Assembly: GCF_000183425.1 (NCBI RefSeq)
Contig: NC_014759.1
Span: 1 to 64,000 of the forward strand
Source: Marivirga tractuosa DSM 4126
Lineage (GTDB): Bacteria > Bacteroidota > Bacteroidia > Cytophagales > Cyclobacteriaceae
Length of the DNA: 64,000 bases
Direction of reading: 5' to 3'
Position numbers and translations under genes: made by a program. Position 1 is the stretch's first letter; the number at the start of each line of letters is the position of its first letter. Shown here piece after piece: positions 11,442-38,200 of this stretch. The notes beneath the pieces were generated by a model, which did not search any database, had not been told where the DNA came from, and saw only the letters and a program-made list of their open reading frames with translations.

Positions 11442-12884
11442 ATGACGGACAAGCAGCTCAAGCCAAGCTTAATTCAAGCACTGATTCCAATTATATTTTT
11501 AATTTCTCTTTTAAGCTTAAATGTCTACTTCTTTGGAGATGGCACTTTAGATGGTTCCAACCAAATCGCTCTAATTTTATCAGCAGGAATTGCTGCAATA
11601 GTGGCATTGAAGGTAGGCTTTAAATGGACGACAATGCTGGATGGTATAGTGAGTAGTATTAGTTCCGCTATGTCTTCTATATTGATTTTATTATTGATTG
11701 GATCTTTAGCTGGCACATGGTTGCTGAGCGGTATCGTTCCCGCCATGATTTATTATGGATTAAACATTCTTAATCCCACTATATTTCTTTTCGCAGCTTG
11801 TATTGTGAGTGCAATTGTCTCGGTGGCAACCGGGAGCTCATGGAGTACAATAGCTACCTTAGGGCTAGCATTGCTTGGAATTGGTCAAACCTTAGGTATG
11901 AGTGAGGGAGTAGTGGCCGGAGCCATCATTTCTGGTGCTTATTTTGGAGATAAAATGTCACCTTTAAGTGATACAACTAATCTGGCACCAGCAATGGCTG
12001 GAACTGACTTATTTACACATATTCGCTACATGGCCTATACCACAATACCGTCTATTGTTATAGCATTAATAATATTTCTGGTATTAGGTTTGATGAATAA
12101 TTCCGAAACTGACATTCAGCAAGTTGGCTTGGTTCAAGCAGCAATACAGGATAAATTTAATATCAATTTATGGTTGTTTTTAGTACCTGCGATTGTGATT
12201 TTCATGATTGTTAAAAAGATATCAGCTATTCCAGCATTGCTAATTGGTTCTTTATTAGGTGGGGCGTTTGCAATTATATTTCAACCACAAATTATTGAAA
12301 CTATAGCTGGTGGTACCGGTAACTTCTTTGAACAATCATACAAAGCTGTAATGGTGTCAATGTACGGAGATATAAGTATCAGTACCAATAATGAAATGGT
12401 AAATGATTTACTCTCTACTGGAGGCATGGCAGGCATGTTGAATACCATCTGGCTAATTGTTTGTGCGATGGTATTTGGAGGTGTGATGGAATCTACCAAT
12501 ATGTTGCGAGTAATCACAGCTTCTATCATAAAATTAGCCAACTCAACTGGTTCATTGGTGGCTTCAACTGCTGGAACATGCGTTTTCTTTAATGTAACCG
12601 CTTCTGACCAATATTTAGCTATTGTAGTACCTGGCAGAATGTTTGCCGAAACCTACAGAGAGCGCGGCTTAAAACCTGAAGTATTGAGTAGAACCCTAGA
12701 AGATTCAGGTACAGTTACCAGTGTGCTTATTCCATGGAATACTTGTGGAGCTACGCAATCCTCCGTTTTAGGAGTTTCTACGTGGACTTATGCACCTTAT
12801 GCGTTTTTTAATATCATAAGTCCATTTATGACCATACTGTTCGCATACCTTAATATTAAAATTAGAAGATTTACTGATAAATGA
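11442..12884 (+). CDS. nhaC: NhaC-family Na+/H+ antiporter
   Basis: A polytopic inner-membrane protein of 480 aa with about 11-12 hydrophobic segments. It exchanges cytoplasmic sodium for protons (or sodium-lactate/malate in some relatives). Diagnostic stretches include the GSSWSTIATLG segment, GAYFGDKMSPLSDTTNLAPA, and the C-terminal PWNTCGATQSSVLGV, all strongly conserved in NhaC. Its stop overlaps the next start by 4 nt (ATGA), so translation is coupled to the RNase D-like gene. It suits a sodium-rich marine habitat. Confidence 0.92.
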   Translation: MTDKQLKPSLIQALIPIIFLISLLSLNVYFFGDGTLDGSNQIALILSAGIAAIVALKVGFKWTTMLDGIVSSISSAMSSILILLLIGSLAGTWLLSGIVPAMIYYGLNILNPTIFLFAACIVSAIVSVATGSSWSTIATLGLALLGIGQTLGMSEGVVAGAIISGAYFGDKMSPLSDTTNLAPAMAGTDLFTHIRYMAYTTIPSIVIALIIFLVLGLMNNSETDIQQVGLVQAAIQDKFNINLWLFLVPAIVIFMIVKKISAIPALLIGSLLGGAFAIIFQPQIIETIAGGTGNFFEQSYKAVMVSMYGDISISTNNEMVNDLLSTGGMAGMLNTIWLIVCAMVFGGVMESTNMLRVITASIIKLANSTGSLVASTAGTCVFFNVTASDQYLAIVVPGRMFAETYRERGLKPEVLSRTLEDSGTVTSVLIPWNTCGATQSSVLGVSTWTYAPYAFFNIISPFMTILFAYLNIKIRRFTDK

Positions 12885-13465
12885 ATTTTGTAAAGGAGAT
12901 TTCAAAGGAAGAGATCAATGATTTACCACTTTGGAAGTTTGAAGGTGAAATTACATTGGTGGAGAAAGATGAAGATTGGGAAGAAGTGATACCTAAACTG
13001 TGGAAAGCAGAAATTTTGGGATTCGACACAGAAGCTAAGCCAGTTTTTAAGAAAGGGCAGTATAATCCAGTTTCACTCATTCAATTGGCCACTGAAGAAG
13101 AGGTTTTCCTTATTCGAAATTTGATGTGTGGCTTTCACGGTGATTTGGTAAGGATTTTTGAAGATCCTTCAATTATTAAAACAGGAGCTGCTATCCATGA
13201 TGATTTAAAAGATTTACAAAAATTAAGGAAATTTAGACCTGAAGGATTTGAGGATATTGGTTCCATTGCAAGGCAAAATGGGATGCTCCAAAGTGGTGCA
13301 AAGAATCTGACCGCTATATTTCTTAACAAAAGAATTTCAAAAGCCCAGCAAACCTCTAACTGGGAAAAATCAGAGTTGACCCAAGCTCAAATAGATTATG
13401 CCGCTACAGATGCCTATCTGGGTTTAAAGGTATATGAAGTTTTTGAGAGGATAGGTTGGGTTTGA
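12881..13465 (+). CDS. RNase D-like 3'-5' exonuclease
   Basis: A 194-aa protein made of a single DEDDy exonuclease domain, as in RNase D and WRN exonuclease but without HRDC. Catalytic residues are visible: D49 and E51 in GFDTEAK, an Asp in AAIHDDLKDL, and Y plus D in the final YAATDAYLGLKVYE motif. It overlaps nhaC by 4 nt. It likely trims RNA 3' ends or DNA; the substrate is unknown. It ends 69 bp before the convergent giant ATPase gene. Confidence 0.92.
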   Translation: MNFVKEISKEEINDLPLWKFEGEITLVEKDEDWEEVIPKLWKAEILGFDTEAKPVFKKGQYNPVSLIQLATEEEVFLIRNLMCGFHGDLVRIFEDPSIIKTGAAIHDDLKDLQKLRKFRPEGFEDIGSIARQNGMLQSGAKNLTAIFLNKRISKAQQTSNWEKSELTQAQIDYAATDAYLGLKVYEVFERIGWV

Positions 13466-13493
13466 TGTTTTACCTTCATTCTAAAGTTGAATA

Positions 13494-13525
13494 AGAATTA
13501 TGTTATAAGAGAATAACATAATTCT
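13494..13525. terminator. AT-rich hairpin between convergent genes
   Basis: A 13-bp perfect stem (13494-13506 with 13513-13525; core GAATTATGTTAT/ATAACATAATTC) with a 6-nt loop lies between the RNase D-like gene and the convergent ATPase gene. It lacks a long T-run, so termination is likely but not certain. Confidence 0.55.
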
Positions 13526-13534
13526 ATGATTTAT

Positions 13535-16500
13535 TTAATTTTTACGATTTATTAAAGCTTTCTCAATATTTTCTAAACCTTCTATAAACAAAGTCATTTG
13601 CCCAATAATTTGAGACATTCTATCAGAATCACCTAGACCTTTTAATTTATTGTTTTTCACAAAGGTTTCTTTTATTGAATTCCATCTTTTAGCTTTTACT
13701 TCATCTAAGTCGTCCATTAGTTCTCCTAACTTTAATAGATTAGCCTCTGCATCAGAAGTTAAGGTCTGAGATTCGTTTTGATAGTGATCTATCAATAGTT
13801 GATATACCTCTCGATCTTCTAATATAGGAACTACTTGACTCATAAGTTTATTCATATCTCTGTATGAACCCTGTAATTTAAAAGGAGGTTCTACTCTATA
13901 ATCATCACTCATTGCAGCAGATGTGATGTATTGTGCGTTTACTTTTAATACTACATCCCTGATATACATTACCTTTTCCAATACCTTCAAACAATCTTGT
14001 ACCTCTTGAGGGGAAAGGTTACCTTCCATATCCGGCATGTTCTGTTCGTCATTTTCAATGTATTTAACCAGCTTATACAAATTGTCCAAACCATATTGCG
14101 TTATGGATTTTAAATAAGGATTTGAAGTAAGTCCATTTTCTATTAAACTTAATCTAAATAAGTCTGCACGATTGGTAGCCGTATCTCCTAGATTATAAAT
14201 ATCAGCTCTATTAGATAGCATATCTGGAATTTGAAATTTGTCACCACTTTCAGTGTAAGGGTTTCCAGCCATCACCACACAGAAACGCTTACCTCTAAAA
14301 TCGTAAGTTTTTGATTCTCCATTAAATACCCCCTCGATTTTGCGTTGTCCATCTGCTAATGAAATAAATTTCTGTAAAAATTCAGGATTACAATGCTGGA
14401 TATCATCTAAGTAGAGCATGACATTATCGCTCATTTCAAATGCTAGATTTAGTTTTTGCAGTTCTTGTCTGGTAGCAGCATTTCGCGCTTCCCCGGGATC
14501 AACGGAAGTGATTTCATGTCCTATTGAAGGACCATTGATTTTCATGAAAATTAAGCCTAGTCGATCTGCTACGTATTCCATCAGAGTAGTTTTACCGTAG
14601 CCAGGAGGAGAAATTAACAATAGCATACCAGATCGGTCGGTACGCTTATCATTACCATAAGCCCCCATTTGTTTGGCAAAATTGGCACCTATTAAAGGAA
14701 AATAAACCTGATTTATCAATTTATTTCTTACAAAAGAGGTCAATACCTGAGTTTGGAATTCGTGTAATTTTAAGGCTTTTCTTTTCTGCTCAACTAAATC
14801 ATGTTTAAGCTTTTGCAATTCCATATACCGAGGCTTTACCTTCTTCACGAAGTTTGTTAACCTATTTACAAATTCATGATAATCGAAATGATAGGATTTT
14901 GTGGATTTATCATTATCCTGCTCATTATGACTAATTACAGCTTTTAAATTATCTATTTTTTCTACACCAGAGATAGTCTGTACCTGTTTACTATCAGCGG
15001 AGTCAGTCATTATAAATCCTGCAACCTCATTGATTGTTTGTTCAGAACTTTCATATTTACTGTTTTCAATAAAAGAAACAATCCATTGCTTGCATAGATG
15101 CCAATTTTCTGCTGGGTGGTCATTTAGCTGGTTTTGCGCATCCTTAAAGTTTAGGTCTGCATTTTTGGTTTTAAGGTGTTTTTTAAATGCGACCAATATA
15201 TCGAAGGCCGTTTTGTCTATTACAAATCCATCTGAAACCTGTTCTTCTGCCAAATAAATTGCCGCCTGACGCACATCAATCTTTTGAAATAAATGATTCT
15301 CCTCAGTGAAATTTTTGATAGCCTCAGTAAGCTTTTCAATTAAATGAACATGCTCTTTGGGGTTGGAGAAGGCTTGTTTTAATAAATTTACGAATACGAA
15401 TTGTTTTTTAAAATAGGCCTTTTTATCAGCATGGGTAAAATGCCAAAATAACTGAGCCAAAATCCTAACATTAGGGGAAAAACGCAATAAGCCCAAATCA
15501 TTGTGCTTCTTAAGTAGTGTTTTTACAATATAGAGTGCGTCATGATCGTGTACTCCTTTTACGTAACCTTCTCCATAATTTGCTGCTGTGTATTGATTAA
15601 TTTCTTCTTTTAATTCTTGATCAGTATATTTTTTTTGCTGATTAAGACTATTGAAAATTTTCCAGGATAAATATTCCGTTCTATTGACATTTTTGTTTTC
15701 AGAAGGAAGTTCCTGTTCCCAAACATCTTTTAAGTCATTGATGTTTGTGGCATCAATTTGTTCGTAATAAGATGTGCCTGTCAGGTGATAAAAGTACTTT
15801 TTATCTTTTATTACCAATGCTAAGTCTAGCTTTTGAGTATTGGTTGAAAATCGATATTCTCCTAATTTAATGATATTATCACCATCTTCAAATAGCTCTT
15901 TTTTGTCTTTTAAAGCTCTTAAGGCTTCTTGTTGCAATACTTGAAGTTGGTTTAATAAGTCTTCTGATTTAGCTGAGTCACCTAAATTTTCCAGTTTTTC
16001 AGCCACATCACGGACTTTATCAATCATGAGATCAGAAGCGAAATAACCATTAATCTCTACATCAGAATCAAAGCTTGCAGCCCTTGATTTTATGCCTTTT
16101 AAGACGCGTTCTGCTGATCCAAATAAAGAATTGGTTTTTTTATTCCGCGCTTCAGTAAGATTAACTTTCTTTGATTCAAACGCGGCATAAATAGATTCTC
16201 TTTTTATACTTATTTTCTCAATAAACTCCTCAAAATCCACAAATCTGCTTTCCAATTCTTCTAACTGTATGGATAATTTGGTTAGATATTCATCGCATTT
16301 TTGAGGATCGGTTGCTAAATCTAAATAGTTTACAATTGACTGTTCAAAAAGGGTCATTTGTGCTTGAAAATCTGCTCTAGCCTCACGTTCCCCCAGTTGT
16401 TTGCGCTTATTGTTTAGGGCTATTCTTTGTTGATTGAGTTGTGCGAATATTAATGAGATGTTCTCTATAATTTGAGTAGAATGAGCAGTGTCTTCTACCT

Positions 16501-18391
16501 TTAAGTTATTGACAATATCAATCAGTAATTCTAATTGAAGAGAGAGCTCATCAAACTCTTTTTCCAATTCTTTTGCGTCAATTACTTTAGTAAGTTTTTC
16601 AACAGACTTTACTAAGGAGTTCATCTGTTTTTGGTAGTAATCAAGTGCATTATCTTTTAGCAGGAATTGCACACATGCCTCTGAAAGTTCATCTGCTCGT
16701 TCAGCTATCTGATTTTCCATTTCCTCTACCAGCTCTAAATCAATATAGCGCAAATTTTTTAGCCCAATAATTTCGCCCCTTATGCTTCTCATTTGAGAAA
16801 GTAAAGAAACATACTGTTCAAGAGTGTCGTAATTGGCACTTCGAGTGTCAAATAGTATTTTCTCTACCTTAGCTTTAGTTTCTTCTAGTGTGTCATTGGT
16901 TTTATTACGGATTTCTACTACTTTTTCAAATTCATCAATAGCTGAAACAGCAATTTTTTTGACAGCCTTTATAGGTTGATTTAAACCTTCAGGCGAATCA
17001 CTTTTTAACCAAAAGTAGCCATCTAATATGCCTTGACTTCTCTTTTCAATGTCTTCATAGAGCCCGTTATAACTATCTTCTTTATTTAATAAAACAATAA
17101 GCTCTTGTATTTCTGCCATGGCATTTACAATCTGCCTATTTCCTATTTTGTAAAGTTCATGGTCTTTAAATTCATCATTTGGAATTAACTCCTTGGTATA
17201 AGGTGTTTGCCAAATTTGTATTAAATGGGTTTTACTAGGCTCTTTTTCAGTATTGAAATAACACATTTCTCCATCTGCAAAAAGAGTGTAGCCATTACAG
17301 AAAATCGGAGTCTTAACCGTTTGTTCAATTACATTGTAAGAGAGAATAACGAAATCATGGTTTTTTTCTTCATAAAAAACGAATAGGTAGTCCTCCCCAT
17401 TTGGAGATTGAACTTTTCTTAAAAATTTTACTCCTTCTATTCGCCTATCAAATATTTTATTTTCACCTGTTTGTAGATAATAGCCATTAGACAATATTAT
17501 CCCTTGTTCATCTGGTAGTAATATTCCTGCGTCTTCAAGCGTATCTACCCTTACTACTTTTTTGACCCTGTAGTTAAAAATGAAATAGCGGTTGCTTTCT
17601 AAATAGGGCTTTATTTTCAGTAAAACTAAATTACCTAAATCACAATAGGATACTTCTGCATCATCTAATGATTGATCTCTTTGCTCAACATCCTCACTAT
17701 ATATTCCTTCCCCATCATCTGTATTATCCTCAATTTTGATTGTCAGATTGCCATTTACTGTTTCAACGAAAACTTTATCGACAATAGAAATATGCGGGTT
17801 TTTACCTGTTCTTTGCATGTCTCTAGTGGCTTTAGTCCACTCAAACTCATGCTGCGCTGGGAATTGTACTTCAGCGGCACTGCGTGAATCTACGAAGGTT
17901 AGTTTTTCATCTTCTATGAGCCATTTAAAAGCTTTTATATCTGTAGGGCTTTCAGATAATTGAAAGACCAAATACAGAAAACTTCCTTTTTTAAAGAAGC
18001 GTGAAAATTGCGTGTTTCTATAAAATTTATAGAGGTTCTGAAGTTCTTCTGAAAAAGTATCATCCTTTATTATATCAGAAGAAATAGGATGAAATTCATC
18101 ATTTTCAAATTTGAATACACTAAATACATCATCAATTTCGAGAATTGATTTAAGGCCTAATCTGACATTATAGCCAAATAAGCAAATATTGCCAATAGAA
18201 ATAATATCTCTTGCCAGACAATTATGTTCAGTTTTAATACGAACATTTGATAGAAGTTTGAATTCAACAGCCCCAAATATATTTTGACGTTCTTTATTTA
18301 GTTTTTGAAGCTTTTCAACCAGATTTTCACGTTGCTCATGTAGTCGGTTTTGAATAATCTCGTAGGTACCTCTTTCAATATTATTATCCAT
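13535..18391 (-). CDS. Giant AAA+ ATPase of the PspA/flotillin operon (DNA repair ATPase-like)
   Basis: A 1618-aa protein, last gene of the envelope operon. Residues 1-430 are beta-rich, with repeated short strands that could form a propeller. Residues about 470-830 are charged and helical, probably coiled coil. Residues about 1225-1480 form an AAA+ module: Walker A PPGYGKTT (1262-1269), Walker B LYLDDI (1326-1331), sensor 1 MAGNP (N1377), and a possible arginine finger in LSNRAD (R1395). Similar proteins are labelled DNA repair ATPase, but I see no DNA-binding domain here. Its place after PspA and flotillin genes suggests remodelling of a membrane-bound assembly. A 152-bp spacer with a strong hairpin precedes it. 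ATG at 18391. Confidence 0.8.
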   Translation of the reverse strand: MDNNIERGTYEIIQNRLHEQRENLVEKLQKLNKERQNIFGAVEFKLLSNVRIKTEHNCLARDIISIGNICLFGYNVRLGLKSILEIDDVFSVFKFENDEFHPISSDIIKDDTFSEELQNLYKFYRNTQFSRFFKKGSFLYLVFQLSESPTDIKAFKWLIEDEKLTFVDSRSAAEVQFPAQHEFEWTKATRDMQRTGKNPHISIVDKVFVETVNGNLTIKIEDNTDDGEGIYSEDVEQRDQSLDDAEVSYCDLGNLVLLKIKPYLESNRYFIFNYRVKKVVRVDTLEDAGILLPDEQGIILSNGYYLQTGENKIFDRRIEGVKFLRKVQSPNGEDYLFVFYEEKNHDFVILSYNVIEQTVKTPIFCNGYTLFADGEMCYFNTEKEPSKTHLIQIWQTPYTKELIPNDEFKDHELYKIGNRQIVNAMAEIQELIVLLNKEDSYNGLYEDIEKRSQGILDGYFWLKSDSPEGLNQPIKAVKKIAVSAIDEFEKVVEIRNKTNDTLEETKAKVEKILFDTRSANYDTLEQYVSLLSQMRSIRGEIIGLKNLRYIDLELVEEMENQIAERADELSEACVQFLLKDNALDYYQKQMNSLVKSVEKLTKVIDAKELEKEFDELSLQLELLIDIVNNLKVEDTAHSTQIIENISLIFAQLNQQRIALNNKRKQLGEREARADFQAQMTLFEQSIVNYLDLATDPQKCDEYLTKLSIQLEELESRFVDFEEFIEKISIKRESIYAAFESKKVNLTEARNKKTNSLFGSAERVLKGIKSRAASFDSDVEINGYFASDLMIDKVRDVAEKLENLGDSAKSEDLLNQLQVLQQEALRALKDKKELFEDGDNIIKLGEYRFSTNTQKLDLALVIKDKKYFYHLTGTSYYEQIDATNINDLKDVWEQELPSENKNVNRTEYLSWKIFNSLNQQKKYTDQELKEEINQYTAANYGEGYVKGVHDHDALYIVKTLLKKHNDLGLLRFSPNVRILAQLFWHFTHADKKAYFKKQFVFVNLLKQAFSNPKEHVHLIEKLTEAIKNFTEENHLFQKIDVRQAAIYLAEEQVSDGFVIDKTAFDILVAFKKHLKTKNADLNFKDAQNQLNDHPAENWHLCKQWIVSFIENSKYESSEQTINEVAGFIMTDSADSKQVQTISGVEKIDNLKAVISHNEQDNDKSTKSYHFDYHEFVNRLTNFVKKVKPRYMELQKLKHDLVEQKRKALKLHEFQTQVLTSFVRNKLINQVYFPLIGANFAKQMGAYGNDKRTDRSGMLLLISPPGYGKTTLMEYVADRLGLIFMKINGPSIGHEITSVDPGEARNAATRQELQKLNLAFEMSDNVMLYLDDIQHCNPEFLQKFISLADGQRKIEGVFNGESKTYDFRGKRFCVVMAGNPYTESGDKFQIPDMLSNRADIYNLGDTATNRADLFRLSLIENGLTSNPYLKSITQYGLDNLYKLVKYIENDEQNMPDMEGNLSPQEVQDCLKVLEKVMYIRDVVLKVNAQYITSAAMSDDYRVEPPFKLQGSYRDMNKLMSQVVPILEDREVYQLLIDHYQNESQTLTSDAEANLLKLGELMDDLDEVKAKRWNSIKETFVKNNKLKGLGDSDRMSQIIGQMTLFIEGLENIEKALINRKN

Positions 18392-18451
18392 AATCGGTTT
18401 ATTCCCTTATCCTAAATGATTAGATTTTTTGGCAATTTGTTGGTGTTTAGA

Positions 18452-18488
18452 TTTAGCTACTGGCTATTAATTAAAGCCAGTAGCTAAA
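18452..18488 (-). promoter_or_regulatory. 14-bp perfect hairpin between flotillin and ATPase genes
   Basis: TTTAGCTACTGGCT (18452-18465) and its exact complement (18475-18488) form a hairpin with a 9-nt AT loop inside the 152-bp spacer. On the transcribed minus strand it follows the flotillin stop by 56 nt and is not followed by a U-run, so attenuation, mRNA processing or 3'-end protection is as likely as full termination. Confidence 0.6.
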
Positions 18489-18543
18489 GTTTAATTGTAT
18501 TTGTAGGAAAGTCCTATTAATATGAAGCTTTTGGGTAATTAAT

Positions 18544-20571
18544 TTATTGTAGCTTTTTTTGATCTAAACCCATTCCGCTAACAAACTTACTTATATTCGA
18601 CAAGAAGCTTTTATCCTCATCAGTTGCTTTCATTTGTACACGGGTAATTAGAGCTGCAATAGATAGATTTTTTATATCTTCTGCTGTAACTCCATATTTG
18701 AAAGCCATATTTTTAATCTTCTCAATTAAATCAGTTTGCTCACCGTTTTCACCGTTACCACCAAAAAAGGAATCTTTGAAGCTCGTAAGTGTATTGGAGT
18801 TTTCTACCAATTTATCAATTCCCTTTCCGTTGGAAACTTGCTTGATAAGATTGTCAAAGAAAGTGTTGTCACCACCGACAATATCAATTTTCGCAGTTTT
18901 AAATGCTTCAGATAGTACTTGAGCTTGTGCATTAGCAATATCTTTTTGTATGCCAATGTCTGCAAGTTGTACTTCTTTCTCTTTATTGAGTTTCAGTCTG
19001 AATTCTTCATGTTCTTTACCAGCATCATTCAATTTCTTCATTGCTTCAGCTTTTTCATGAATTCCTTTAGCCTCAGCAACTGCTTTTTCTTGGATGACAC
19101 TAGCTTCTGCTAGTCCTTGTTTTCTTTTTGCTTCTGCTAGTTTCTCAACTACTATTGCATCCACAGTACCTTGTCTCTCGTTTGCGTCAGCTTTTGCATG
19201 CATGACTTGTGCTTCAGACATTCCAATCGTAGCTTCTTCCTTAGCTTTTGCATCTGCAATTATTTTTCTTGCTTCTGCTTCCATATCAGCAGCATCCTTC
19301 TTAGCCCCCGCTTCAATGAGTACCTTTTGTGCATCAAACTTAGCAGCTTGTTCTCTTGATTCTGCAGCTTTTACATCTTCAATTAAGTGTTGCTCTGCTT
19401 CTTTATCAGCATTAATAATGGCAACTTCTTTTAATCTATTCGCTTCTTTTAAAGCAACAACATCTTTGATTTTTTCTTGTTCTTCAACAACAGTTTTTTC
19501 CATTACAACACGTTCACGGATGGCGTCTTGGATATTTCTTTTTTCAATTTCTACTGCTTTTTCTTTTTCGATTTGAGCGAGTGAAACTATCCTTTCTCTT
19601 TCTGTTGCCTCAATATCACGATCTTTTTGTACTCTTTCAGTTTCAACTGCTTCAGCCCTTTCTTTATTTTTGGCAGCAATAATTACCTGACGAAGTTTGT
19701 TTTCTTGTTGTATTTCAAGCTGTTCCTCAGTTCTAATACGTACTTCCTCTGACTTCAGTTTTTCTTGTGAGCTTACAGTGTCAATCTCAGCTTGTTCTCG
19801 GGCTATAATTGTTTCAATTTCCCTGCGTTGCGATTCTTCTTTCTCTTTTTGTTGCTTTTCAAGTTCTAAGATAGCTTCCCTAGCTTCAACATCTTGTTTT
19901 TTGATAGTTTTCTCCTCATCTCTGCGGATCAAATTCGATTTAACCTTTTGAGCAGCAGTTAATTCTGTGATTTTTTTGATACCCTCAGCATCTAAGATAT
20001 TGTCAGCATCCAGGTTTACTACATTAGTCTGTTCTAAATAATCAATCGCACAATCATCTAAAACATAGCCGTTTAAATCTGTACCTATAATGTCGATGAT
20101 TTCATTTCTAAATTCTCTCCTAGCTTCATATAACTCTATGAATTCAAACTTTTTACCTACACTTTTTAGTGCTTCTGAGAATTTTGCTTCAAAAAGGCTC
20201 TCCAACGTTTCATGATCAGATGCTCTTTCACATCCAATAGTTTGTGCAACGTTGACTATATCTTGAACAGATTTATTTACTCTTACAAAAAAAGCTACTT
20301 TAATGTCTGCCCTCATATTGTCTTTGCAGATTAGTCCATCTTTCATCATTCTGGAAATTTCCAGTTTTTTGACAGATATATCCATGATTTCTTCTTTATG
20401 CAGAATAGGGATTACCATACCTGCATTGAAGAATATTTTGACACCACCCTGTCCGGTCCGTACTAAAACACGGCCTTGGCTTACTTTTTTATACATTGAG
20501 ATGAGCCAGATTCCTAGCCCAAATAAAACAACGATGCCTACTGTGGCAACTACGTAAAATGATTCTATCAT
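18544..20571 (-). CDS. YqiK-like flotillin (SPFH protein)
   Basis: Flotillins form membrane microdomain scaffolds. From the ATG at 20571 the protein is 675 aa: a membrane segment (about 5-28), an SPFH/band 7 domain (about 35-200), a very long helical region rich in E, A and K (about 215-590) with the A/E repeats typical of flotillins, and a short C-terminal domain ending in a region also rich in helices. The longer upstream start at 20610 would overlap the preceding gene and adds only polar residues, so M at 20571 is preferred; it lies 16 nt after the yqiJ-like stop. The pairing with a YqiJ/NfeD-type protein matches E. coli YqiJK and Bacillus YuaF-FloT. Confidence 0.9.
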   Translation of the reverse strand: MIESFYVVATVGIVVLFGLGIWLISMYKKVSQGRVLVRTGQGGVKIFFNAGMVIPILHKEEIMDISVKKLEISRMMKDGLICKDNMRADIKVAFFVRVNKSVQDIVNVAQTIGCERASDHETLESLFEAKFSEALKSVGKKFEFIELYEARREFRNEIIDIIGTDLNGYVLDDCAIDYLEQTNVVNLDADNILDAEGIKKITELTAAQKVKSNLIRRDEEKTIKKQDVEAREAILELEKQQKEKEESQRREIETIIAREQAEIDTVSSQEKLKSEEVRIRTEEQLEIQQENKLRQVIIAAKNKERAEAVETERVQKDRDIEATERERIVSLAQIEKEKAVEIEKRNIQDAIRERVVMEKTVVEEQEKIKDVVALKEANRLKEVAIINADKEAEQHLIEDVKAAESREQAAKFDAQKVLIEAGAKKDAADMEAEARKIIADAKAKEEATIGMSEAQVMHAKADANERQGTVDAIVVEKLAEAKRKQGLAEASVIQEKAVAEAKGIHEKAEAMKKLNDAGKEHEEFRLKLNKEKEVQLADIGIQKDIANAQAQVLSEAFKTAKIDIVGGDNTFFDNLIKQVSNGKGIDKLVENSNTLTSFKDSFFGGNGENGEQTDLIEKIKNMAFKYGVTAEDIKNLSIAALITRVQMKATDEDKSFLSNISKFVSGMGLDQKKLQ

Positions 20572-20587
20572 AAGATTTGAGTTTAAA

Positions 20588-21220
20588 TTATTGTGGATAT
20601 TTTTGTGCAAGAAAGTATTTCTTGTCTGGTGATTCTTCTAAAATTATCACTGTTTCATTAAAGGCTACTAGCTGTTCATCAATGGATTTTGCATAAACTT
20701 TAATGATGTCGCCATTTACCTGAATTTCTAATTGACCAATTTTATCAAATCCTATCGGAGAAAGTACTTTTCCAGTTTTACCGATAAAATCAATTGCTAC
20801 TTCTCCTTTATGATTAAATTGTGCATATAGTTTGACAAATGGTTTGGCAACTACTTTTGTAATAAGCATACTTACTATTAAGCCCGGAATATATAGTAAA
20901 AATCCAAACAGGTTGTTTTCTATCCCAAGTATAGCAGTGATATTCACATTTATAAGCCACATGCAAAAAATCACGATAGTAATTATGAACATGACGGGAA
21001 GCTCCCCAATGTAAAAGAAGGATAAAAATGAGTTCCAGAAGCTAGGGCTTTCTATTTCTCCTGCCTCTATTGCTCCTGAATCAGCATCAACATCGGCATT
21101 GGCAAAGTCTAAATCTAAGCCAGTAAAAATAATTAAAAGCCAATAAAACACCATTAAAGCCGCCAACATGGTTAAGATGAAATTAGCAGGTGCTAAAGCG
21201 ATATTTATTAAATTCTCCAT
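20588..21220 (-). CDS. YqiJ-like membrane protein with OB-fold domain
   Basis: A 210-aa membrane protein of the YqiJ/DUF1449 type. There are three hydrophobic segments (about 13-33, 72-92 and 98-125) and a C-terminal soluble OB-fold domain (about 135-200) like that of NfeD proteins, with GKTGKVLSPIG and GQLEIQVNGD strands. Such proteins accompany flotillins and are thought to anchor or organise them. It lies directly upstream of the flotillin gene (16 nt) and 80 bp downstream of pspA on the same strand. Confidence 0.87.
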   Translation of the reverse strand: MENLINIALAPANFILTMLAALMVFYWLLIIFTGLDLDFANADVDADSGAIEAGEIESPSFWNSFLSFFYIGELPVMFIITIVIFCMWLINVNITAILGIENNLFGFLLYIPGLIVSMLITKVVAKPFVKLYAQFNHKGEVAIDFIGKTGKVLSPIGFDKIGQLEIQVNGDIIKVYAKSIDEQLVAFNETVIILEESPDKKYFLAQKYPQ

Positions 21221-21300
21221 AGTTGCAATTAAAAATATTGTTTTCAGAATGATTTTATTGTGATCCCTTTATTTTGGGCCATGCATGGGCTCTCTGAAAA

Positions 21301-21993
21301 TTATATTCCTAATTGCTTTTTCATTTGTGCTAATTCATCTTCCACCGAAAGATTTTCAATGGCTTTGTTCATTTTTTCTTCATTAGTTTCACTTGCTTCA
21401 GCCATTTCACCATAAGCCTGAGCCAAAGCTTCATCTTGCATTACTTTGCTCTTCATTCTTTCCAACATTGAAACCACGCTATGACTATCCATATTGGTCA
21501 TTTGCTTATTGATTTTTTGAGTGGCACTGCTTACTTTAACACGAGCTTTTAGAGTGCTTAATTCATTTTCCCATTGTTTTATACCAGTTTTGATGCTGTT
21601 TACATTTTTTTCTAATGTTGCAACTTGCTTCTCTAAATTGGCCACATCATCTTTTATTAAAAGAATGTCTTTAGCCAATTGCGCTTTTCTTTTTAGGTTT
21701 TCTTTAACAAAATTGTCTGCTTCCGCACTATCAATTTCTTTCTGCTGAGCTTTTTTCAATAGCAATACTGATTTGTTTTGAAGGTCTTCTTCAGCCTCTT
21801 TAGTTTCGTTGAGTTCTCGTGTTCTTTTTATATGCATGGCTTTTACTTCTGCTAAAGAACGCATGGCAACATCTTGATTTTCACGCATATCTCGTAACCC
21901 CTGTTCAACCATTTTGATTGGGTCTTCCAGTTTATCTACTGCCGAGTTGGTTTCAGCTTGTCCGATTTTAAATAGTCTTCTTAGTACATTCAT
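21301..21993 (-). CDS. pspA: PspA/IM30 family protein
   Basis: PspA/IM30 (Vipp1) proteins are ESCRT-III-like helical proteins that coat and repair stressed inner membrane. The 230-aa product begins with the amphipathic helix MNVLRRLFKIGQAETNSAVDKLEDP, followed by the family's long helical hairpin (about 25-145) including EDPIKMVEQGLRDM and further helices to 230. The ATG at 21993 is preferred over one at 22032 because the latter overlaps the upstream gene and spoils the amphipathic start. It lies 10 nt after the YjfI-like gene. Confidence 0.93.
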   Translation of the reverse strand: MNVLRRLFKIGQAETNSAVDKLEDPIKMVEQGLRDMRENQDVAMRSLAEVKAMHIKRTRELNETKEAEEDLQNKSVLLLKKAQQKEIDSAEADNFVKENLKRKAQLAKDILLIKDDVANLEKQVATLEKNVNSIKTGIKQWENELSTLKARVKVSSATQKINKQMTNMDSHSVVSMLERMKSKVMQDEALAQAYGEMAEASETNEEKMNKAIENLSVEDELAQMKKQLGI

Positions 21994-22003
21994 GATTTTA
22001 AAT

Positions 22004-22396
22004 TTAGTTTTTTGAAAATGAAACAAGCTCATTGGAAAATTCTGATAGCAATAATCCCAATGAGTTAATAGTGCTTTCTAATTCTTCAAGATCCAAAGTT
22101 TCAACTTGCAAAGTGTTTCTAAAGATTACCTTTTCGCCTTTTTCGTCTAATACAAAAGCACCATGAACAATATCCCGATTTTTGATAAGTAGTTGTTTGT
22201 AAATATTTCCTTCATCTTTTACTTCAAATAGATATTGCTCAATAATTACAATTGGAGATGCTACACCAATTACCATGTTTTTCACACCTAGTTCTTCATT
22301 CTCCACTACTAATAAGCTATCGGTTTCACTTTCATGTAGAATTACTGACTCAAGCTCCAAAACAAACTCTTTAACTTTTTTGAAATGCGGTTCCAT
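22004..22396 (-). CDS. YjfI-like DUF2170 protein
   Basis: A 130-aa protein from the ATG at 22396 (upstream alternative start rejected because it adds a poorly conserved leader across the promoter region). It matches the YjfI/DUF2170 pattern: a central NRDIVHGAFVLDEKGEKVIFRNTL motif and a C-terminal DLEELESTINSLGLLL helix. In enterobacteria yjfI sits next to a PspA homologue (yjfJ), as here. The function is unknown; the likely role is as a PspA partner in the cytoplasm. First gene of the minus-strand operon. Confidence 0.85.
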   Translation of the reverse strand: MEPHFKKVKEFVLELESVILHESETDSLLVVENEELGVKNMVIGVASPIVIIEQYLFEVKDEGNIYKQLLIKNRDIVHGAFVLDEKGEKVIFRNTLQVETLDLEELESTINSLGLLLSEFSNELVSFSKN

Positions 22397-22466
22397 TAAT
22401 GGCTTATTTTTTATTTTAAAAATTGATATGGTGATTAAACCATAGCACAATATCCATGAAAATATT

Positions 22467-22514
22467 TATATTTGCAAATAGTATTTGCATTATATGATAA
22501 TATTATTTGCAAAG
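22467..22514. promoter_or_regulatory. Divergent control region with repeated TATTTGCA sites
   Basis: Between the operon (start 22396) and the divergent XRE gene (start 22539) lie three copies of TATTTGCA at 22469, 22482 and 22504. The first is part of a perfect 12-bp palindrome TATTTGCAAATA (22469-22480). It overlaps an exact TAnnTTTG match (TATATTTG, 22467-22474) that would be the -7 element of the XRE gene. This looks like an operator for autoregulation and control of the operon; the assignment to the XRE protein is inference. Confidence 0.6.
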
Positions 22515-22538
22515 TATTGTTATTTAAATTATTGGAAT

Positions 22539-23183
22539 ATGTCAAAATACGGAGAAAACATAAAGAAAATACGTAGTGTAAGAGGATTAACGCAATCTCA
22601 ATTAGCAGATATTATTGATGTGAGTAGAGGAGTGATCAGTTCATACGAAGAGGGTAGGGCAGAACCAAAAATTGAGACGATTATAAAAACAGCTGAGGTA
22701 TTTCAAGTTACAATTGATACATTGTTGAAGAAAAATATTACAGTAAATCAACTAAGCGGATTTGCCATACCAGATATTTTGACTGATAATAAACAGATAG
22801 CTACATCTTCTGGAAATGAAGAGTTTGCTAAATTTTTTCCTAGTGGATTAATAATTTTAGAAGCATCTAAAGTAAATGAAAATATTTACTGTACTGGCAA
22901 TGACTTAATATTTGGACTTAAAGATGAGGCTACAAAAAATAAGTTATTTGTAATAGAATTGTATAATGAATCAATAATTGGGAGAGTCACACAAATAACT
23001 GATGAATTTATTTTCTTAAATAGATCAAAGATTCTAATTAAAGATATAAAAAGGACTATTAAAGTGATTGGCATCTACCAGCCTTTTAAAACTGTTTCTC
23101 CTTTAGAGAATAGGCTTATGTTATTGGAAAAAAGGCTCAAGAAAATTGAAGAAGCAATCGAGAGTGATTGGTCAGATATATAG
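22539..23183 (+). CDS. XRE-family regulator with S24-like C-terminal domain
   Basis: A 214-aa regulator. Residues about 5-62 form a helix-turn-helix of the XRE type (IRSVRGLTQSQLADIIDVSRGVISSYEEG). The C-terminal half resembles the S24/LexA beta fold (NDLIFGLKDE, then IIGRVTQI), but I see no Ser-Lys catalytic pair, so it probably senses a ligand or dimerises and does not self-cleave. The ATG at 22539 fits the HTH; codons upstream of it are AT-rich and overlap the operator repeats. It is divergent from the PspA/flotillin operon and is its best candidate regulator. Confidence 0.85.
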   Translation: MSKYGENIKKIRSVRGLTQSQLADIIDVSRGVISSYEEGRAEPKIETIIKTAEVFQVTIDTLLKKNITVNQLSGFAIPDILTDNKQIATSSGNEEFAKFFPSGLIILEASKVNENIYCTGNDLIFGLKDEATKNKLFVIELYNESIIGRVTQITDEFIFLNRSKILIKDIKRTIKVIGIYQPFKTVSPLENRLMLLEKRLKKIEEAIESDWSDI

Positions 23184-23324
23184 TGAATCTTTTAATCAGA
23201 TTTTTTAATTCAGCCTTCTGTTAAGGATGGTTCCGATGATTTCACAACAATTTAACAATTATCAATAGTTGTTATACTAACAATTTGTTTACTTTGTAGT
23301 TAAATCGGTGGAAGGAATAAAAAT

Positions 23325-25280
23325 ATGGAAATCTCAACTAAAAATTTTCAGCAGTATTGTAATAGCTTAGTTGCTTATAAGCGTAGAAAAACTATTCCTG
23401 TAAAAGTGGGTGATGTTACTATTGGAGGTGATAATCCTATTGTTTTGCAATCCATGACTACTGTTGACACCATGGACACAGAAGGCTCCATTGAGCAATC
23501 CATCAGAATGATTGATGCAGGGTGTCAGTTGGTAAGAATTACCGCTCCCTCGATCAAGGAAGCTGAAAATTTGAGAGCCATTAAAGAAGGCCTAAAGAAA
23601 CGAGGCTACAACTCTCCTTTGGTAGCCGATATCCATTTCACACCCAATGCAGCAGAATTAGCAGCCAAGATAGTAGAAAAAGTAAGGGTGAATCCTGGCA
23701 ATTATGCCGATAAAAAGAAATTTGAGAATATTGAATATACAGATGAGAGCTATCAAGCGGAATTAGATAGAATAAAAAAGCGTTTTAAGCCCTTGGTCAA
23801 GATCTGTAAAGAACATGGCACTGCGATGAGAATAGGCACCAATCACGGTTCGCTTTCTGATCGTATTATGAGCCGGTATGGTGACACTCCTTTTGGTATG
23901 GTGGAATCCGCCTTGGAATTCATCAGGATATGTGAAGAAATGGAGTTCTATGATATAGTAGTTTCCATGAAGTCAAGTAATCCGCAAGTGATGGTGCAGG
24001 CCTATCGTTTGTTGGTGCAAAAGCTCGATGAAGAAGGTCTAAAACCTTATCCCTTGCATTTAGGTGTAACAGAAGCAGGAGAGGCAGAAGATGGTCGTAT
24101 CAAAAGCTCTGTAGGTATAGGAACTTTGTTGGAAGATGGTTTAGGAGATACCATTCGGGTTTCTTTAACAGAAGAGCCAGAGGAAGAAATCCCAGTTGCC
24201 AAGGTTTTAGCTGATCGTTATAATGAGAGAGAGGATCATGATGAAATCCCGCTGATAGATAATTGCCTTTTCAATCCTTATGAATATGAAAAAAGAGATA
24301 GCAGGCAAGTAGCAAATATAGGTGGTCAGGAAGTGCCAATAGTCATGGCTGATTTTTCTTTGAAACAGAATATTACACCGGCTTCATTTTTTGGAGTAGG
24401 TTATAATTACTCAGTCCCCTTAGATAAATGGTCAATTTCTGACTTTGCTTGTGATTACATATTCACCAATGACAAAGCAGTAGATTTTGAAATTCCGGGT
24501 ACATTAGGAATAGTACATTCCCACAAAACTTGGTTGGATGAAAAGCATAAGGAAAGAAGATTTCCTTTTATCAATCCTAAAGATTATTTAAAAGGAGTTG
24601 AAGTGCATCCTAAATTAAACTTCATATACGCCATTTTATCTGATTTATCGGAGGAGTTAATTGTAAAATTAAAAAATGACCCAACTGCTGTTTTATTGAT
24701 AGATACCTACAATACACATGGAATGGCTGAACAGCGCAGATTATTTATGGAATTGATGCAAAAGAGTTGTGATGTTCCGGTTGTAATTGGTAGAGCGTAT
24801 CAAGACTTATCATTAGAGAAACTTCAGTTATATTCAGCTACCGATATGGGCGGTTTATTGATTGACGGTTTTGGAGATGGTGTATTTATAGCGGCTGAAA
24901 ACTGTGGAGGTGATAAAGCTATTAATGAAACTGCTTTTAATATTTTGCAGGCGAGCCGAACTAGAATTTCCAAAACGGAATATATTTCCTGCCCTTCTTG
25001 TGGAAGAACTTTGTTTGATTTACAGGAAACCACGGCCATGATTAGAAATAGAACTAATCACCTGAAAGGTGTGAAGATTGGGATTATGGGCTGTATAGTA
25101 AATGGGCCAGGTGAGATGGCCGATGCAGATTATGGTTATGTAGGCTCAGGAAAAGGTAAAATCACCTTGTATAAGGGACAAGAAGTTATGAAAAGGGGAG
25201 TGCCTTCAGAAAGAGCAGTAGATGAGTTAATTGATATTATCAGGCAAGATGGCAAATGGTTAGAACCACAAGAGGCTTAA
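23325..25280 (+). CDS. ispG: 4-hydroxy-3-methylbut-2-enyl diphosphate synthase IspG (long form)
   Basis: IspG (GcpE) makes HMBPP in the MEP isoprenoid pathway with a [4Fe-4S] cluster. The 651-aa protein is the three-domain form with an extra domain inserted between the TIM barrel and the cluster domain, as in Bacteroidetes and plants. The N-terminal barrel motif NPIVLQSMTTVDTMDT is clear, and the cluster cysteines appear as C556 and C559 (CPSCGRT) and C590 (MGCIVNGPGE). The gene has its own upstream region of 141 bp after the XRE gene and is followed by two short genes on the same strand. Confidence 0.97.
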   Translation: MEISTKNFQQYCNSLVAYKRRKTIPVKVGDVTIGGDNPIVLQSMTTVDTMDTEGSIEQSIRMIDAGCQLVRITAPSIKEAENLRAIKEGLKKRGYNSPLVADIHFTPNAAELAAKIVEKVRVNPGNYADKKKFENIEYTDESYQAELDRIKKRFKPLVKICKEHGTAMRIGTNHGSLSDRIMSRYGDTPFGMVESALEFIRICEEMEFYDIVVSMKSSNPQVMVQAYRLLVQKLDEEGLKPYPLHLGVTEAGEAEDGRIKSSVGIGTLLEDGLGDTIRVSLTEEPEEEIPVAKVLADRYNEREDHDEIPLIDNCLFNPYEYEKRDSRQVANIGGQEVPIVMADFSLKQNITPASFFGVGYNYSVPLDKWSISDFACDYIFTNDKAVDFEIPGTLGIVHSHKTWLDEKHKERRFPFINPKDYLKGVEVHPKLNFIYAILSDLSEELIVKLKNDPTAVLLIDTYNTHGMAEQRRLFMELMQKSCDVPVVIGRAYQDLSLEKLQLYSATDMGGLLIDGFGDGVFIAAENCGGDKAINETAFNILQASRTRISKTEYISCPSCGRTLFDLQETTAMIRNRTNHLKGVKIGIMGCIVNGPGEMADADYGYVGSGKGKITLYKGQEVMKRGVPSERAVDELIDIIRQDGKWLEPQEA

Positions 25281-34174: not shown

Positions 34175-37100
34175 TTAAGAATCAAGTTTTTTACTAATAC
34201 TAAAATGGATAGTGGTCCCATATCCTTCTTGGCTTTCCACCGTGATTTCACCTAAATGAGTTTCCACAATTTTTTTACATACGGCTAGTCCAATTCCATG
34301 GCTCTCATTATCTTCTTGATGTACCTTCTGAAAAATTTTAAATACTCGGTCAAAATCACGCTGAGATATGCCAATGCCATTATCAGCTACAGAAAAAATG
34401 TAACTGAATTCATCTTCTGAGGCTTTGAGGGTTATTTCAGGCTTCTTTTCTGACCGATATTTAATGGCATTTTGTATTAAGTTTTGTAATAATCTTCCGA
34501 ATAGGATAGGATATGCTTTGAAATCACCAATATTATCATTCACGCTAATAATGGCATTGTTTTCTTTTATAAGTTTTTGAAGCGAGAATTTCACTTCCTC
34601 GGTCATGTCGTTAAGGTTAATGGTTTTCAATTCCTCATTTAAAACTCCTGACCTAGAATACTCCAACAATGAGTTGATCATCTGGTTCATTTTATCTCCT
34701 GCTCCTGCTGCCATTCGCATGTAATTCTCTAATTTTTCATTCAACTCTCCTTTAGATTTTTTCAATATTAATTCTAATATGCTTTTAATATTTCGGGCTG
34801 GTTCCTTTAGATCATGTGAGGCAACATAAGCAAATTCTTCTAAGGATTTATTCAAATCTGTAAGCTTATTATTTCGGGATCTTAGTATTTGGTTCAATGA
34901 CTCAATTTGATTTTCAAATTCTTTTTCACGACTTATTTCAGCTTGAATGGAAAAGAAACCTATAGGTTTTCTGAATCTATCATGTAAAAGTTCACATTGG
35001 ATATTAGTCCAATACTTATGTCCTTTGTCAGTATAATTAATGATATCCACCTCAAAACCTTTTCTTTCTTTTATGGCATCACTCATGATTTTTACCGTTT
35101 TAGGATCTGTTTCCTTTCCTTGTAAAAAATCTCCCGGCTTTCTACCTAACACATACGATTCCTTATAGCCTGTTAATTTAAGAAATGATTCATTTACATA
35201 ATTAATTTTGCCTTCTAAATCGGTAATGATCACCGCATATTTAGTCTGTTTGGCAATTAATGATAGTTTTTGAATTTCTTCCTCGAAATAAATCCTTCTA
35301 CTAACGTCCTTACTAATAGCTAGTATTTTAAATAATTCACCACCTTCATTATTAACGGCCGCAAATCGAGTTTCCAACCATTTCGACTCCTTCTTTCCTG
35401 TTTTGAGTTCAATTTGGATAGTAGCTGTATTTTCCCCTTTCTTTATTTTATTAAATGTGCTTTTCCATAAGTTTCGGTGGTCTTTGTCTTTAATAAATTT
35501 ATTGGGATTTATGGTAAGTAAATCTTCAGGGGTCACACCTAAAATTTCTTTTGAAGCAGGTGAAATATACTCTATTTTCCCGTTCAAATCGAGCAAACTA
35601 ATCATTTCACTTGATTGATTTATAATCAATTTGAATAGCTCAATTTGTGTTTCGAAATCCTGATTAATTTGATTTAAAGCATTTTCATTAAGTTGTATTG
35701 AATTATTGGCTTGGGAATATGATGTGATTTCCACAAATGATATTACAACACCTTTAATCTCATTTTTATTCGTTCTAAAGGGAGAAACCCTCATCATAAA
35801 CTTACGGTCGTTGGGGTCCTGAATGGTCGTTTCAAAAGGCTGTAAATCTCTGTGAACTCCCTCTATTTTATCGGTGAAATTTTCAATTTGAAAGCGAGAC
35901 CTAAAATGACTGATATGCCTACCTTCATCATGTGGCATCAAATTAAGTATGTCTTTAAGTGCAGGGGTAAACTTCCTAATATTGAGTTCTTCATCTAAAA
36001 AAAGTATCGCAATATTGGTGCTGTAAATAAGGTTGTTTAAATCATTATTGGAAGCGGTCAGTTCTTCTACTTTTTCTTGAAACTCTGCATTTACAGTATG
36101 TAATTCCTCATTTACTGACTCTAATTCTTCATTTGAACTTTGCAGTTCTTCATTGGATGCTTGTAGTTCCTCGTTGCTTGATTCAAGTTCTTCAATGGTT
36201 GTTTGAAGGTTTTCTTTATTTACCTTTAATTCTCTTTCCAGTAGCTCGATTTTTTCTTTGGAGGCTAAATCTAAGTTGATAGGAGAGGTTTTACCTTTCT
36301 TTTGTATGCTTTTATTCCCTTCAAACAATGCAATAATCAATACAGACCCATCATCACTTTCTATTTTTTTGAAATAAATATTGAGGAATTTTGTGTCATA
36401 TATTTTTTCCATTTCCGGAGTGAGCTCCGCATTTTTTAAGCTTACTTCCTTGTCTTCTTGAATAATTTTATTGGCAGCGACCTCAAAAGTTAAACTTAAA
36501 TTTTCAGGCAACATTCTAAGGATATTGATGCTGACTACGCCTAAAGGTAATTTGAGCCATTGATTAGTTCTTCCTGTGGTATGAACCAAATCAAAATTCT
36601 GATTAAATATGACTGCATCAGGGACATATTCTTGAATTAAAAAGTCTCTGATGTTTTCCAACATTTTTTTAGGAGAGATTGAAAATTTACTGTTTGCCGA
36701 GCTGATTTGATTTTGGTCTGTTGAAGGAGTCATTTTCATCCTAATGGGTTTCTTATTGGCTCCTTGATCCATTGGTTTTAAGACCTTTTGATTCTTTTTA
36801 TTTTGAAATATTTTATGTTTTTTATCGAACTCTTGAAATGCAGTATCTTTCTCTCCAACTGATTCACTTGAGCCTAATACTAGGAATCCATTTGATTTCA
36901 AGGTGAATTGAAAGAGAGAAAAAAGCTGTTTTTGAATATTAGGATTCAGATAAATTAAAAAATTCCGGCAGCTGACTAAATCAATTTTACTAAATGGAGG
37001 ATCCTGAATGATATTGTGAACCGTAAAGACAATCATATCACGGATTTCATTCGCAATCTTGTAGCCTTCTTTTTGATGGATAAAATATGCTCCTAAAATA

Positions 37101-38197: not shown

Positions 38198-38200
38198 ATT

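What the first reader, a model, noticed from the sequence alone, without database searches (positions are those of the whole stretch)
13535..23183. PspA/flotillin/YqiJ/YjfI/giant-ATPase envelope operon with its own XRE switch
Five adjacent minus-strand genes encode YjfI (DUF2170), PspA/IM30, a YqiJ-like OB-fold membrane protein, a YqiK-like flotillin and a 1618-aa AAA+ ATPase, with a divergent XRE regulator. PspA, flotillin and NfeD/YqiJ-type proteins are each known in membrane stress and microdomain biology. The combination with a very large AAA+ protein suggests one machine that coats, organises and remodels membrane. The ATPase label of DNA repair seems poorly supported here.
Basis: partly seen in the sequence, partly recalled or inferred. 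Interest (0 to 1): 0.75.

Follow-up and report, generated by a model that had tools for sequence, protein, structure and literature searches.

The report
Flotillin, PspA and ATPase stress cassette
A six-gene cassette probably used to organise and maintain the bacterial inner membrane, of a kind already described from genome comparisons, whose giant protein looks like a propeller-carrying remodelling ATPase rather than a DNA-repair enzyme and which comes with its own linked regulator.

Summary
Five co-directional genes (22396 down to 13535) encode a CesT/Tir-fold chaperone, PspA, a YqiJ/NfeD-like membrane protein, a flotillin-like protein and a 1618-aa AAA+ ATPase, with a divergent XRE gene (22539-23183). 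The combination is in print: Ravi et al. 2024 (PMC11237479, section 19), without this regulator in the main text. So it is a new member of a known kind.

Additions: (1) the DUF3686 part, source of the "DNA repair" label, is predicted to be a beta-propeller; the AAA+ part lies elsewhere and most resembles MoxR-type (NorQ, CbbQ) and dynein modules. (2) The ATPase's constant neighbours are flotillin and YqiJ (61 of 64 loci), not PspA (30 of 64). (3) The XRE gene belongs to the large cassette: 29 of 30 loci with PspA plus ATPase, 0 of 11 with the chaperone-PspA pair alone; its promoter region is enriched in TTWGCAAA sites. (4) The cassette is a ~9.8-kb islet between an RNase D-like gene and ispG, in 2 of 10 genomes of the genus.

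Best reading: an XRE-repressed flotillin-cage and ATPase remodelling module with a PspA branch. Function is inferred, not shown.

The parts
22539..23183 (+). XRE regulator: Cro/CI-type HTH plus a short, degenerate C-terminal region (S24/LexA-like in some orthologues) and a coiled-coil-like tail (by eye)
   Evidence: HTH_3 E 1.5e-13, no S24 hit for the window protein. Of 8 orthologues scanned, PF00717 Peptidase_S24 passes the cut-off in 2 (both Hymenobacter, 3.4e-8 and 7.7e-7), is sub-threshold in 2 and absent in 4. At the recalled catalytic Ser position, aligned by eye, most members with the motif have Glu or Ala, one has Ser.
22397..22538 (.). divergent promoter/operator region between XRE and the chaperone gene
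   Evidence: 46 TTWGCAAA-type sites in 38 such regions; first-order Markov shuffles mean 3.7, max 11; other intergenic DNA of these loci 13 sites in 56,974 bp
22471..22478 (.). candidate operator TTTGCAAA (also fits the recalled Bacteroidota -7 box TAnnTTTG)
22506..22513 (.). candidate operator TTTGCAAA
22004..22396 (-). CesT/Tir-like chaperone (PF22550), 130 aa
   Evidence: E 3.8e-55; frame checked
21301..21993 (-). PspA/IM30 family protein, 230 aa, with conserved N-terminal segment (MNxxxRLFKIGxAE-like)
   Evidence: PF04012 E 1.2e-35; alignment
20588..21220 (-). YqiJ/YuaF (NfeD)-like membrane protein, about 3 hydrophobic segments plus OB-fold-like tail
18544..20571 (-). flotillin-like (SPFH/Band-7) protein, 675 aa, one N-terminal hydrophobic segment, long Ala/Glu-rich region
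   Evidence: Band_7 in 2 of 14 aligned proteins, best 2.4e-13
18452..18488 (-). 14-bp-stem hairpin between flotillin and ATPase genes
   Evidence: z -4.93; core stem kept by a paired change in the congener; perfect 10-bp hairpins in 10 of 51 such gaps of other loci vs shuffle mean 0.36, max 2
13535..18391 (-). 1618-aa AAA+ ATPase
17201..18268 (-). ATPase residues 42-397: predicted beta-propeller (most of DUF3686)
13709..14749 (-). ATPase residues about 1215-1561: AAA+ module, MoxR/dynein-like
13472..23242 (.). cassette as an islet between the RNase D-like gene and ispG
   Evidence: the two genes are 105-1180 bp apart in 7 congeners without the cassette

Best explanation
This is an inducible inner-membrane quality-control cassette. 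The flotillin-like protein with its YqiJ/NfeD-like partner would build a cage or microdomain on the cytoplasmic face of the membrane. The giant cytosolic ATPase would dock there through its beta-propeller and use a MoxR-type AAA+ ring to pull apart or refit proteins held in the microdomain. PspA with its CesT/Tir-type chaperone is an add-on, seen mainly in Bacteroidota here, that patches damaged membrane and is kept in check by the chaperone. The divergent XRE protein represses the cassette through TTWGCAAA operators in the shared promoter and is released under envelope stress. Shown by computation: gene content, conservation, predicted folds, motif integrity, linkage and site enrichment. Inferred: ring and cage assembly, docking, substrate, the inducing signal, repression.
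For: Flotillin and YqiJ both lie beside the ATPase in 61 of 64 loci with more than 6 kb upstream (in one, L093, on the opposite strand). They also do in 10 of 11 fetched plasmid-record loci from Pseudomonadota, Actinomycetota, Deinococcota and Bacteroidota; the eleventh, Streptomyces globosus, shows flotillin only. Walker A, Walker B, sensor-1 Asn, Arg-finger-like NRxD and sensor-2 Arg positions are invariant or nearly so in 90 aligned ATPases. The propeller is supported and the MoxR/dynein-like AAA+. XRE accompanies PspA+ATPase cassettes in 29 of 30 and bare chaperone-PspA pairs in 0 of 11 (Fisher p 4e-9, ignoring relatedness). Site enrichment. The largest cluster of other neighbouring ORFs spans 9 of 80 loci at scattered positions. 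PMC11237479 section 19 reaches a similar chaperone-like, membrane-complex role from context.
Against: No interaction, localisation or phenotype was tested. The MoxR lead over ClpA is only 1.6 Z units in a large model, and sequence searches weakly favour classical AAA proteins such as Rix7 and CDC48. Walker B reads DD, not DE, so hydrolysis may be weak. 2 of 64 loci have neither flotillin nor YqiJ, 1 has flotillin only, and one distant copy stands alone (L029). 11 of 38 promoter regions lack the motif, which was picked from the same data. In P. aeruginosa, SPFH deletions, which include a flotillin of a related operon, gave little phenotype (PMC13086221, passages).
Confidence: 0.45

Rival explanations
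1. ESCRT-III/Vps4-like machine: the ATPase disassembles PspA polymers, so the cassette is a bacterial membrane-scission or repair engine.
For: PspA is homologous to ESCRT-III (PMC11237479, passages), sits beside the ATPase in 30 of 64 loci and within about 6 kb of DUF3686 in 8 of 8 DUF3686 genomes of an even Bacteroidota sample, own genome included.
Against: 34 of 64 ATPase loci have no PspA beside them, while 62 of 64 have flotillin. The AAA+ module resembles MoxR/dynein. 11 of 19 genomes with strong chaperone-PspA pairs in the sample lack DUF3686.
Confidence: 0.18
2. MoxR-type maturation factor: the ATPase refits or loads a cofactor into a membrane enzyme, with flotillin/YqiJ as the platform.
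For: Best structural neighbours are NorQ and CbbQ, which by recalled knowledge activate NO reductase and Rubisco.
Against: No client enzyme recurs beside the cassette: the largest other cluster spans 9 of 80 loci at scattered positions. I did not search for VWA domains specifically.
Confidence: 0.15
3. Anti-phage or plasmid-conflict system: a patchy, XRE-controlled islet acting at the membrane.
For: Islet in 2 of 10 congeners, copies in 12 plasmid records, XRE linkage.
Against: ATPase, flotillin, YqiJ and CesT proteins have no PADLOC hit at E up to 0.01; PspA and XRE hits are coiled-coil or HTH matches. No match in 50,697 phage records.
Confidence: 0.1
4. DNA repair ATPase, as the database name says.
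For: Pfam title of PF12458; RuvB and MCM among Foldseek hits of the C-terminal half; a weak RuvB_N hit.
Against: PF12458 covers the predicted propeller, not the ATPase. RuvB, MCM and Clp hits share the general AAA+ fold. Constant neighbours are membrane proteins.
Confidence: 0.04

Closest known systems
CesT/Tir-PspA + band-7/flotillin + YqiJ/YuaF + AAA+ operon of Ravi et al. 2024 (e.g. ANH61662/ANH61663), PMC11237479 section 19
   Same: Same five protein types; [quoted passage not shown] same wider spread of shorter operons with flotillin, YqiJ and in some cases the ATPase
   Different: Main text has no hit for XRE, LexA or S24 (supplements not readable); here a linked XRE, an enriched motif, a MoxR/dynein-like lean for the AAA+ and an islet with empty sites
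Pseudomonas aeruginosa bac operon (BacA DUF2170/YjfI, BacB PspA, short NfeD, PaFlo3), PMC10948618 and PMC13086221
   Same: CesT/Tir-fold chaperone, PspA, NfeD and SPFH protein in one gene row
   Different: YjfI family rather than CesT_Tir_1; no giant ATPase in the passages I saw
SPFH-NfeD pairs such as QmcA-YbbJ and FloA-NfeD, and HflK/C-FtsH
   Same: SPFH protein with an NfeD-type partner; HflK/C works with an AAA+ protease (papers seen as listing, reference title or passage only)
   Different: Here the AAA+ is a soluble giant with no hydrophobic segment found and no protease domain in Pfam
MoxR AAA+ ATPases NorQ/CbbQ
   Different: Walker B DD where DE is usual (recalled); propeller and coiled coil fused
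E. coli yqiJ-yqiK; Shewanella SO1376-SO1377
   Same: YqiJ-type (DUF1449) plus flotillin-family pair; SO1377 knock-out is peroxide-sensitive (PMC1468410, title, abstract start and passages)
   Different: No ATPase, PspA or XRE mentioned with them in what I read

Membership tests
CesT/Tir-PspA-flotillin-YqiJ-AAA operon (Ravi et al. 2024) | CesT/Tir-superfamily gene next to PspA | tested here: met
   PF22550 E 3.8e-55 and PF04012 E 1.2e-35, 10 bp apart
CesT/Tir-PspA-flotillin-YqiJ-AAA operon (Ravi et al. [quoted passage not shown]
   Hydrophobic segment at 11-41; Band_7 only through relatives (2 of 14); 48-64% identity to the flotillins of relatives outside the genus
CesT/Tir-PspA-flotillin-YqiJ-AAA operon (Ravi et al. 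2024) | 3TM YqiJ/YuaF-type protein | tested here: met
   the window protein alone is below the Pfam cut-off
CesT/Tir-PspA-flotillin-YqiJ-AAA operon (Ravi et al. 2024) | AAA+ with N-terminal propeller and coiled coil | tested here: met
   predicted fold and motifs
ESCRT-III/Vps4 system | Vps4-type (classical, MIT-bearing) ATPase | tested here: inconclusive
   No MIT hit in Pfam; best folds MoxR/dynein, Vps4 not listed
MoxR AAA+ family | MoxR-like AAA+ fold with Walker B DE (recalled) | tested here: inconclusive
   Fold best matched; catalytic Glu position is Asp in 90 of 90. 70 of the 90 come from a scan one of whose two patterns contained DD; the other 20 do not
DNA repair ATPase (PF12458 title) | ATPase domain within the DUF3686 family region | tested here: not met
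   DUF3686 24-460 is largely predicted propeller; P-loop at 1261-1268
LexA/CI-type self-cleaving repressors | S24 domain with catalytic Ser/Lys | tested here: not met
   No S24 hit in the window protein; over the cut-off in 2 of 8 orthologues; Ser position (recalled, by eye) mostly Glu or Ala, Ser in one, L026
Known anti-phage systems (PADLOC) | match of core proteins to a defence model | tested here: not met
Psp response | induction by envelope stress and membrane protection | not testable with these tools
   needs experiments

The most novel reading that the evidence does not exclude
A new kind of cage-coupled remodelling machine: a propeller-bearing MoxR/dynein-type ATPase with a DD Walker B that works almost always with a flotillin-YqiJ cage across several phyla. 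In Bacteroidota it has captured a PspA-chaperone branch and a dedicated, non-cleaving XRE/S24-type sensor that reads the state of the cassette's own products, for example by binding free PspA or chaperone.
Probability: 0.25. Interest if true: 0.65.

Novelty: new member of a known kind. Interest (0 to 1): 0.36.

Why it matters
Bacterial flotillins have no agreed job. An ATPase that is their near-constant partner in one gene family, under a name that points to DNA repair, would give them a motor and make the question testable. Separating the constant core (flotillin, YqiJ, ATPase) from the optional PspA branch changes which interaction should be tested first. The linked regulator and its candidate operator give a handle for finding the inducing stress.

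Tried and rejected
Considered and rejected or left open: DUF2170/YjfI as the first gene's family (CesT_Tir_1 instead). Anti-phage role. A further conserved cassette member: clustering of other ORFs of 90 aa or more in 80 loci gave clusters of at most 9 loci at scattered positions. Sigma-70-type promoters are at shuffle level (39 found, mean 40.0), and Bacteroidota promoters are not covered by that scan. No terminator-like site was called in the flotillin-ATPase gap. No solved structure related by sequence to the flotillin or the chaperone at the limits used. Vps4 is absent from the VIA list, which is not evidence against it. No target-site duplication or recombinase was noticed by eye at the islet ends; not searched systematically. 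Paper searches with DUF3686, PF12458 and 'DNA repair ATPase' showed no functional study of this protein in the rows listed (20 rows each; 1 row; open-licence PMC only).

Of 12 plasmid records, 11 were fetched (not H3, a second Proteus). One search examined all 11 genomes of the sample with strong CesT_Tir_1 and no DUF3686; two of these stretches (L132, L137) were cut by contig ends. The 38 regions include 30 bases of the downstream ORF in most cases, and two are from the window's genus.
Full report
What is there. The window lies in a member of the genus that, by the best evidence, holds Marivirga harenae (Bacteroidota): the closest named ATPase, 88% identical, is from M. harenae, and the congener G004 has a contig of the same length as that record. 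Between an RNase D-like gene (12881-13465) and ispG (23325-25280) lie five minus-strand genes and a divergent plus-strand gene. In order of transcription these are a CesT/Tir-fold chaperone (PF22550), PspA (PF04012), a YqiJ/YuaF-like membrane protein, a flotillin-like protein and an ATPase of 1618 aa. With the likely starts, the gaps are 10, 80, 16 and 152 bp.

Is it conserved? In the first set of relatives, 13 of 59 genomes (own included) carry DUF3686. Thirteen loci were fetched from the 12 others. Seven show all six genes with the XRE divergent, 3 show YqiJ-flotillin-ATPase only, 2 are cut by contig ends, and 1 (L029) is a lone divergent ATPase. In an even sample of 296 Bacteroidota genomes, DUF3686 occurs in 8 (own included). 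In all 8 it lies within about 6 kb of both a strong CesT_Tir_1 gene and PspA. At E up to 0.001, CesT_Tir_1 occurs in 39 genomes (19 of them with E below 1e-44) and PspA in 125 (coordinates compared by eye). Among 80 named loci, 64 have more than 6 kb upstream: 29 have flotillin, YqiJ, PspA, chaperone and XRE; 29 flotillin and YqiJ only; 2 flotillin, YqiJ and XRE; 1 flotillin, YqiJ and PspA; 1 flotillin only; 2 none. All 30 loci with PspA are Bacteroidota by record title. The plasmid collection has 12 records with the ATPase and the phage collection none. Of the 11 plasmid-record loci fetched, 10 show YqiJ, flotillin and ATPase and 1 flotillin and ATPase. Two of the 10 have more: a Hymenobacter record has all six genes, its regulator annotated as LexA family, and pQBR103 has YjfI, PspA, DUF2491, DUF350, DUF1190 and a glutathionylspermidine-synthase gene in the same row. 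Some of those records are chromosome-sized. So the constant core is YqiJ-flotillin-ATPase, and the chaperone-PspA pair is an extension.

The regulator. The module-linked XRE proteins share the HTH. Some carry an S24/LexA-like C-terminal region, over the Pfam cut-off in 2 of 8 orthologues scanned, both Hymenobacter, and sub-threshold in 2 more. The window protein has no such hit. Where the motif around the recalled catalytic serine can be aligned by eye, the residue is mostly Glu or Ala, with Ser in one. XRE accompanies 29 of 30 PspA-containing ATPase loci and 2 ATPase loci that lack PspA. It is not detected, nor are flotillin and YqiJ, in any of the 11 sampled loci with the chaperone-PspA pair but no DUF3686 (Fisher p 4e-9 if loci are taken as independent, which they are not). 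Only one other XRE-profile hit occurs in the 80 loci (L110). In 38 XRE-module intergenic regions, TTWGCAAA on either strand occurs 46 times (27 of 38 regions; first-order Markov shuffles mean 3.7, max 11). Other intergenic DNA of the same loci has 13 sites in 56,974 bp. Caveats: the motif was found in the same data, regions are related by descent, 11 of 38 lack it, and TTTGC can be part of a Bacteroidota -7 box (recalled). A repressor site over the -7 box is the simplest reading.

Mobility. In the genus, the RNase D-like gene and ispG are neighbours on one contig in 7 genomes without the cassette, 105, 105, 127, 127, 473, 705 and 1180 bp apart; in one further genome (G007, 88% complete) ispG was not found. 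The flotillin is found in 2 of 10 genomes. Window DNA matches the empty sites up to about 13472 and again from about 23242. The cassette is thus an islet gained or lost at one site. The congener G004 carries it at the same site with extra ORFs on both sides.

Between flotillin and ATPase. The 152-nt gap folds with a 14-bp stem (z -4.93, 0 of 200 shuffles as stable). In G004 the core of the stem is kept with a paired change. Perfect 10-bp hairpins occur in 10 of 51 such gaps of 26-400 bp in the named loci (shuffles mean 0.36, max 2), in 0 of 28 YqiJ-flotillin gaps, 1 of 9 PspA-YqiJ gaps and 0 of 5 CesT-PspA gaps. Most lack a T tail. A likely use is to make flotillin, a cage protein, in larger amounts than the ATPase; this is inference.

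Mechanism. The best-supported account is a regulated flotillin-cage plus ATPase remodelling module with a PspA branch (confidence 0.45). Steps shown: gene content, linkage, intact ATPase motifs, predicted folds, site enrichment. Steps inferred: cage, docking by the propeller, substrate, stress signal, repression. The ESCRT-like rival is weakened because PspA is optional (34 of 64 loci without) and because of the AAA+ type. It is not excluded for the Bacteroidota form.

What is known. Ravi et al. 2024 (PMC11237479; section 19 in full, otherwise found passages) describe this operon and its short form. Their main text has no hit for XRE, LexA or S24; supplements were not readable. PMC10948618 (passages) gives the P. 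aeruginosa bac operon with the BacA structure. PMC13086221 (passages) reports that SPFH proteins there are largely dispensable. PMC1468410 (passages) reports the Shewanella SO1377 knock-out. The finding is therefore mostly a good rediscovery. The regulator linkage, the core-versus-branch split, the AAA+ lean and the islet are the additions, none of them proved at the bench.

Noticed in passing
18452-18488 (window); flotillin-ATPase gaps in L044, L045, L046, L065, L069, L082, L090, L100, L113, L118: Recurrent strong hairpin between flotillin and ATPase genes, 10 of 51 gaps against shuffle mean 0.36; paired change kept in the congener.
   Followed up: partly
13472-23242: The cassette is an islet at an otherwise tight RNase D-like/ispG junction, present in 2 of 10 genomes of the genus.
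   Followed up: yes
L031 1986-15190 (plasmid pQBR103): YjfI-PspA-rhomboid-DUF2491-DUF350-DUF1190-glutathionylspermidine synthase genes run straight into YqiJ-flotillin-ATPase, joining two operon types that Ravi et al. list apart.
   Followed up: no
L071 9857-19819: In a Gimesia MAG the ATPase ORF is about 3320 aa, twice the usual length; the extra C-terminal part was not identified.
   Followed up: no
L068 9965-14812 and L103 9926-15241: ATPase gene split into two ORFs in Dysgonomonas capnocytophagoides and in a Rubripirellula MAG.
   Followed up: no
L042, L043: Two Chryseobacterium species show no chaperone-PspA pair but keep the XRE divergent from YqiJ.
   Followed up: partly
L029 12093-16922: A second, 33% identical ATPase paralogue without flotillin or YqiJ nearby in genome G019.
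   Followed up: no
ATPase residues 1329-1330: Walker B is DD rather than DE in all 90 aligned members.
   Followed up: partly
34175-40771: Two long minus-strand ORFs (1340 and 856 aa) elsewhere in the window were not examined.
   Followed up: no
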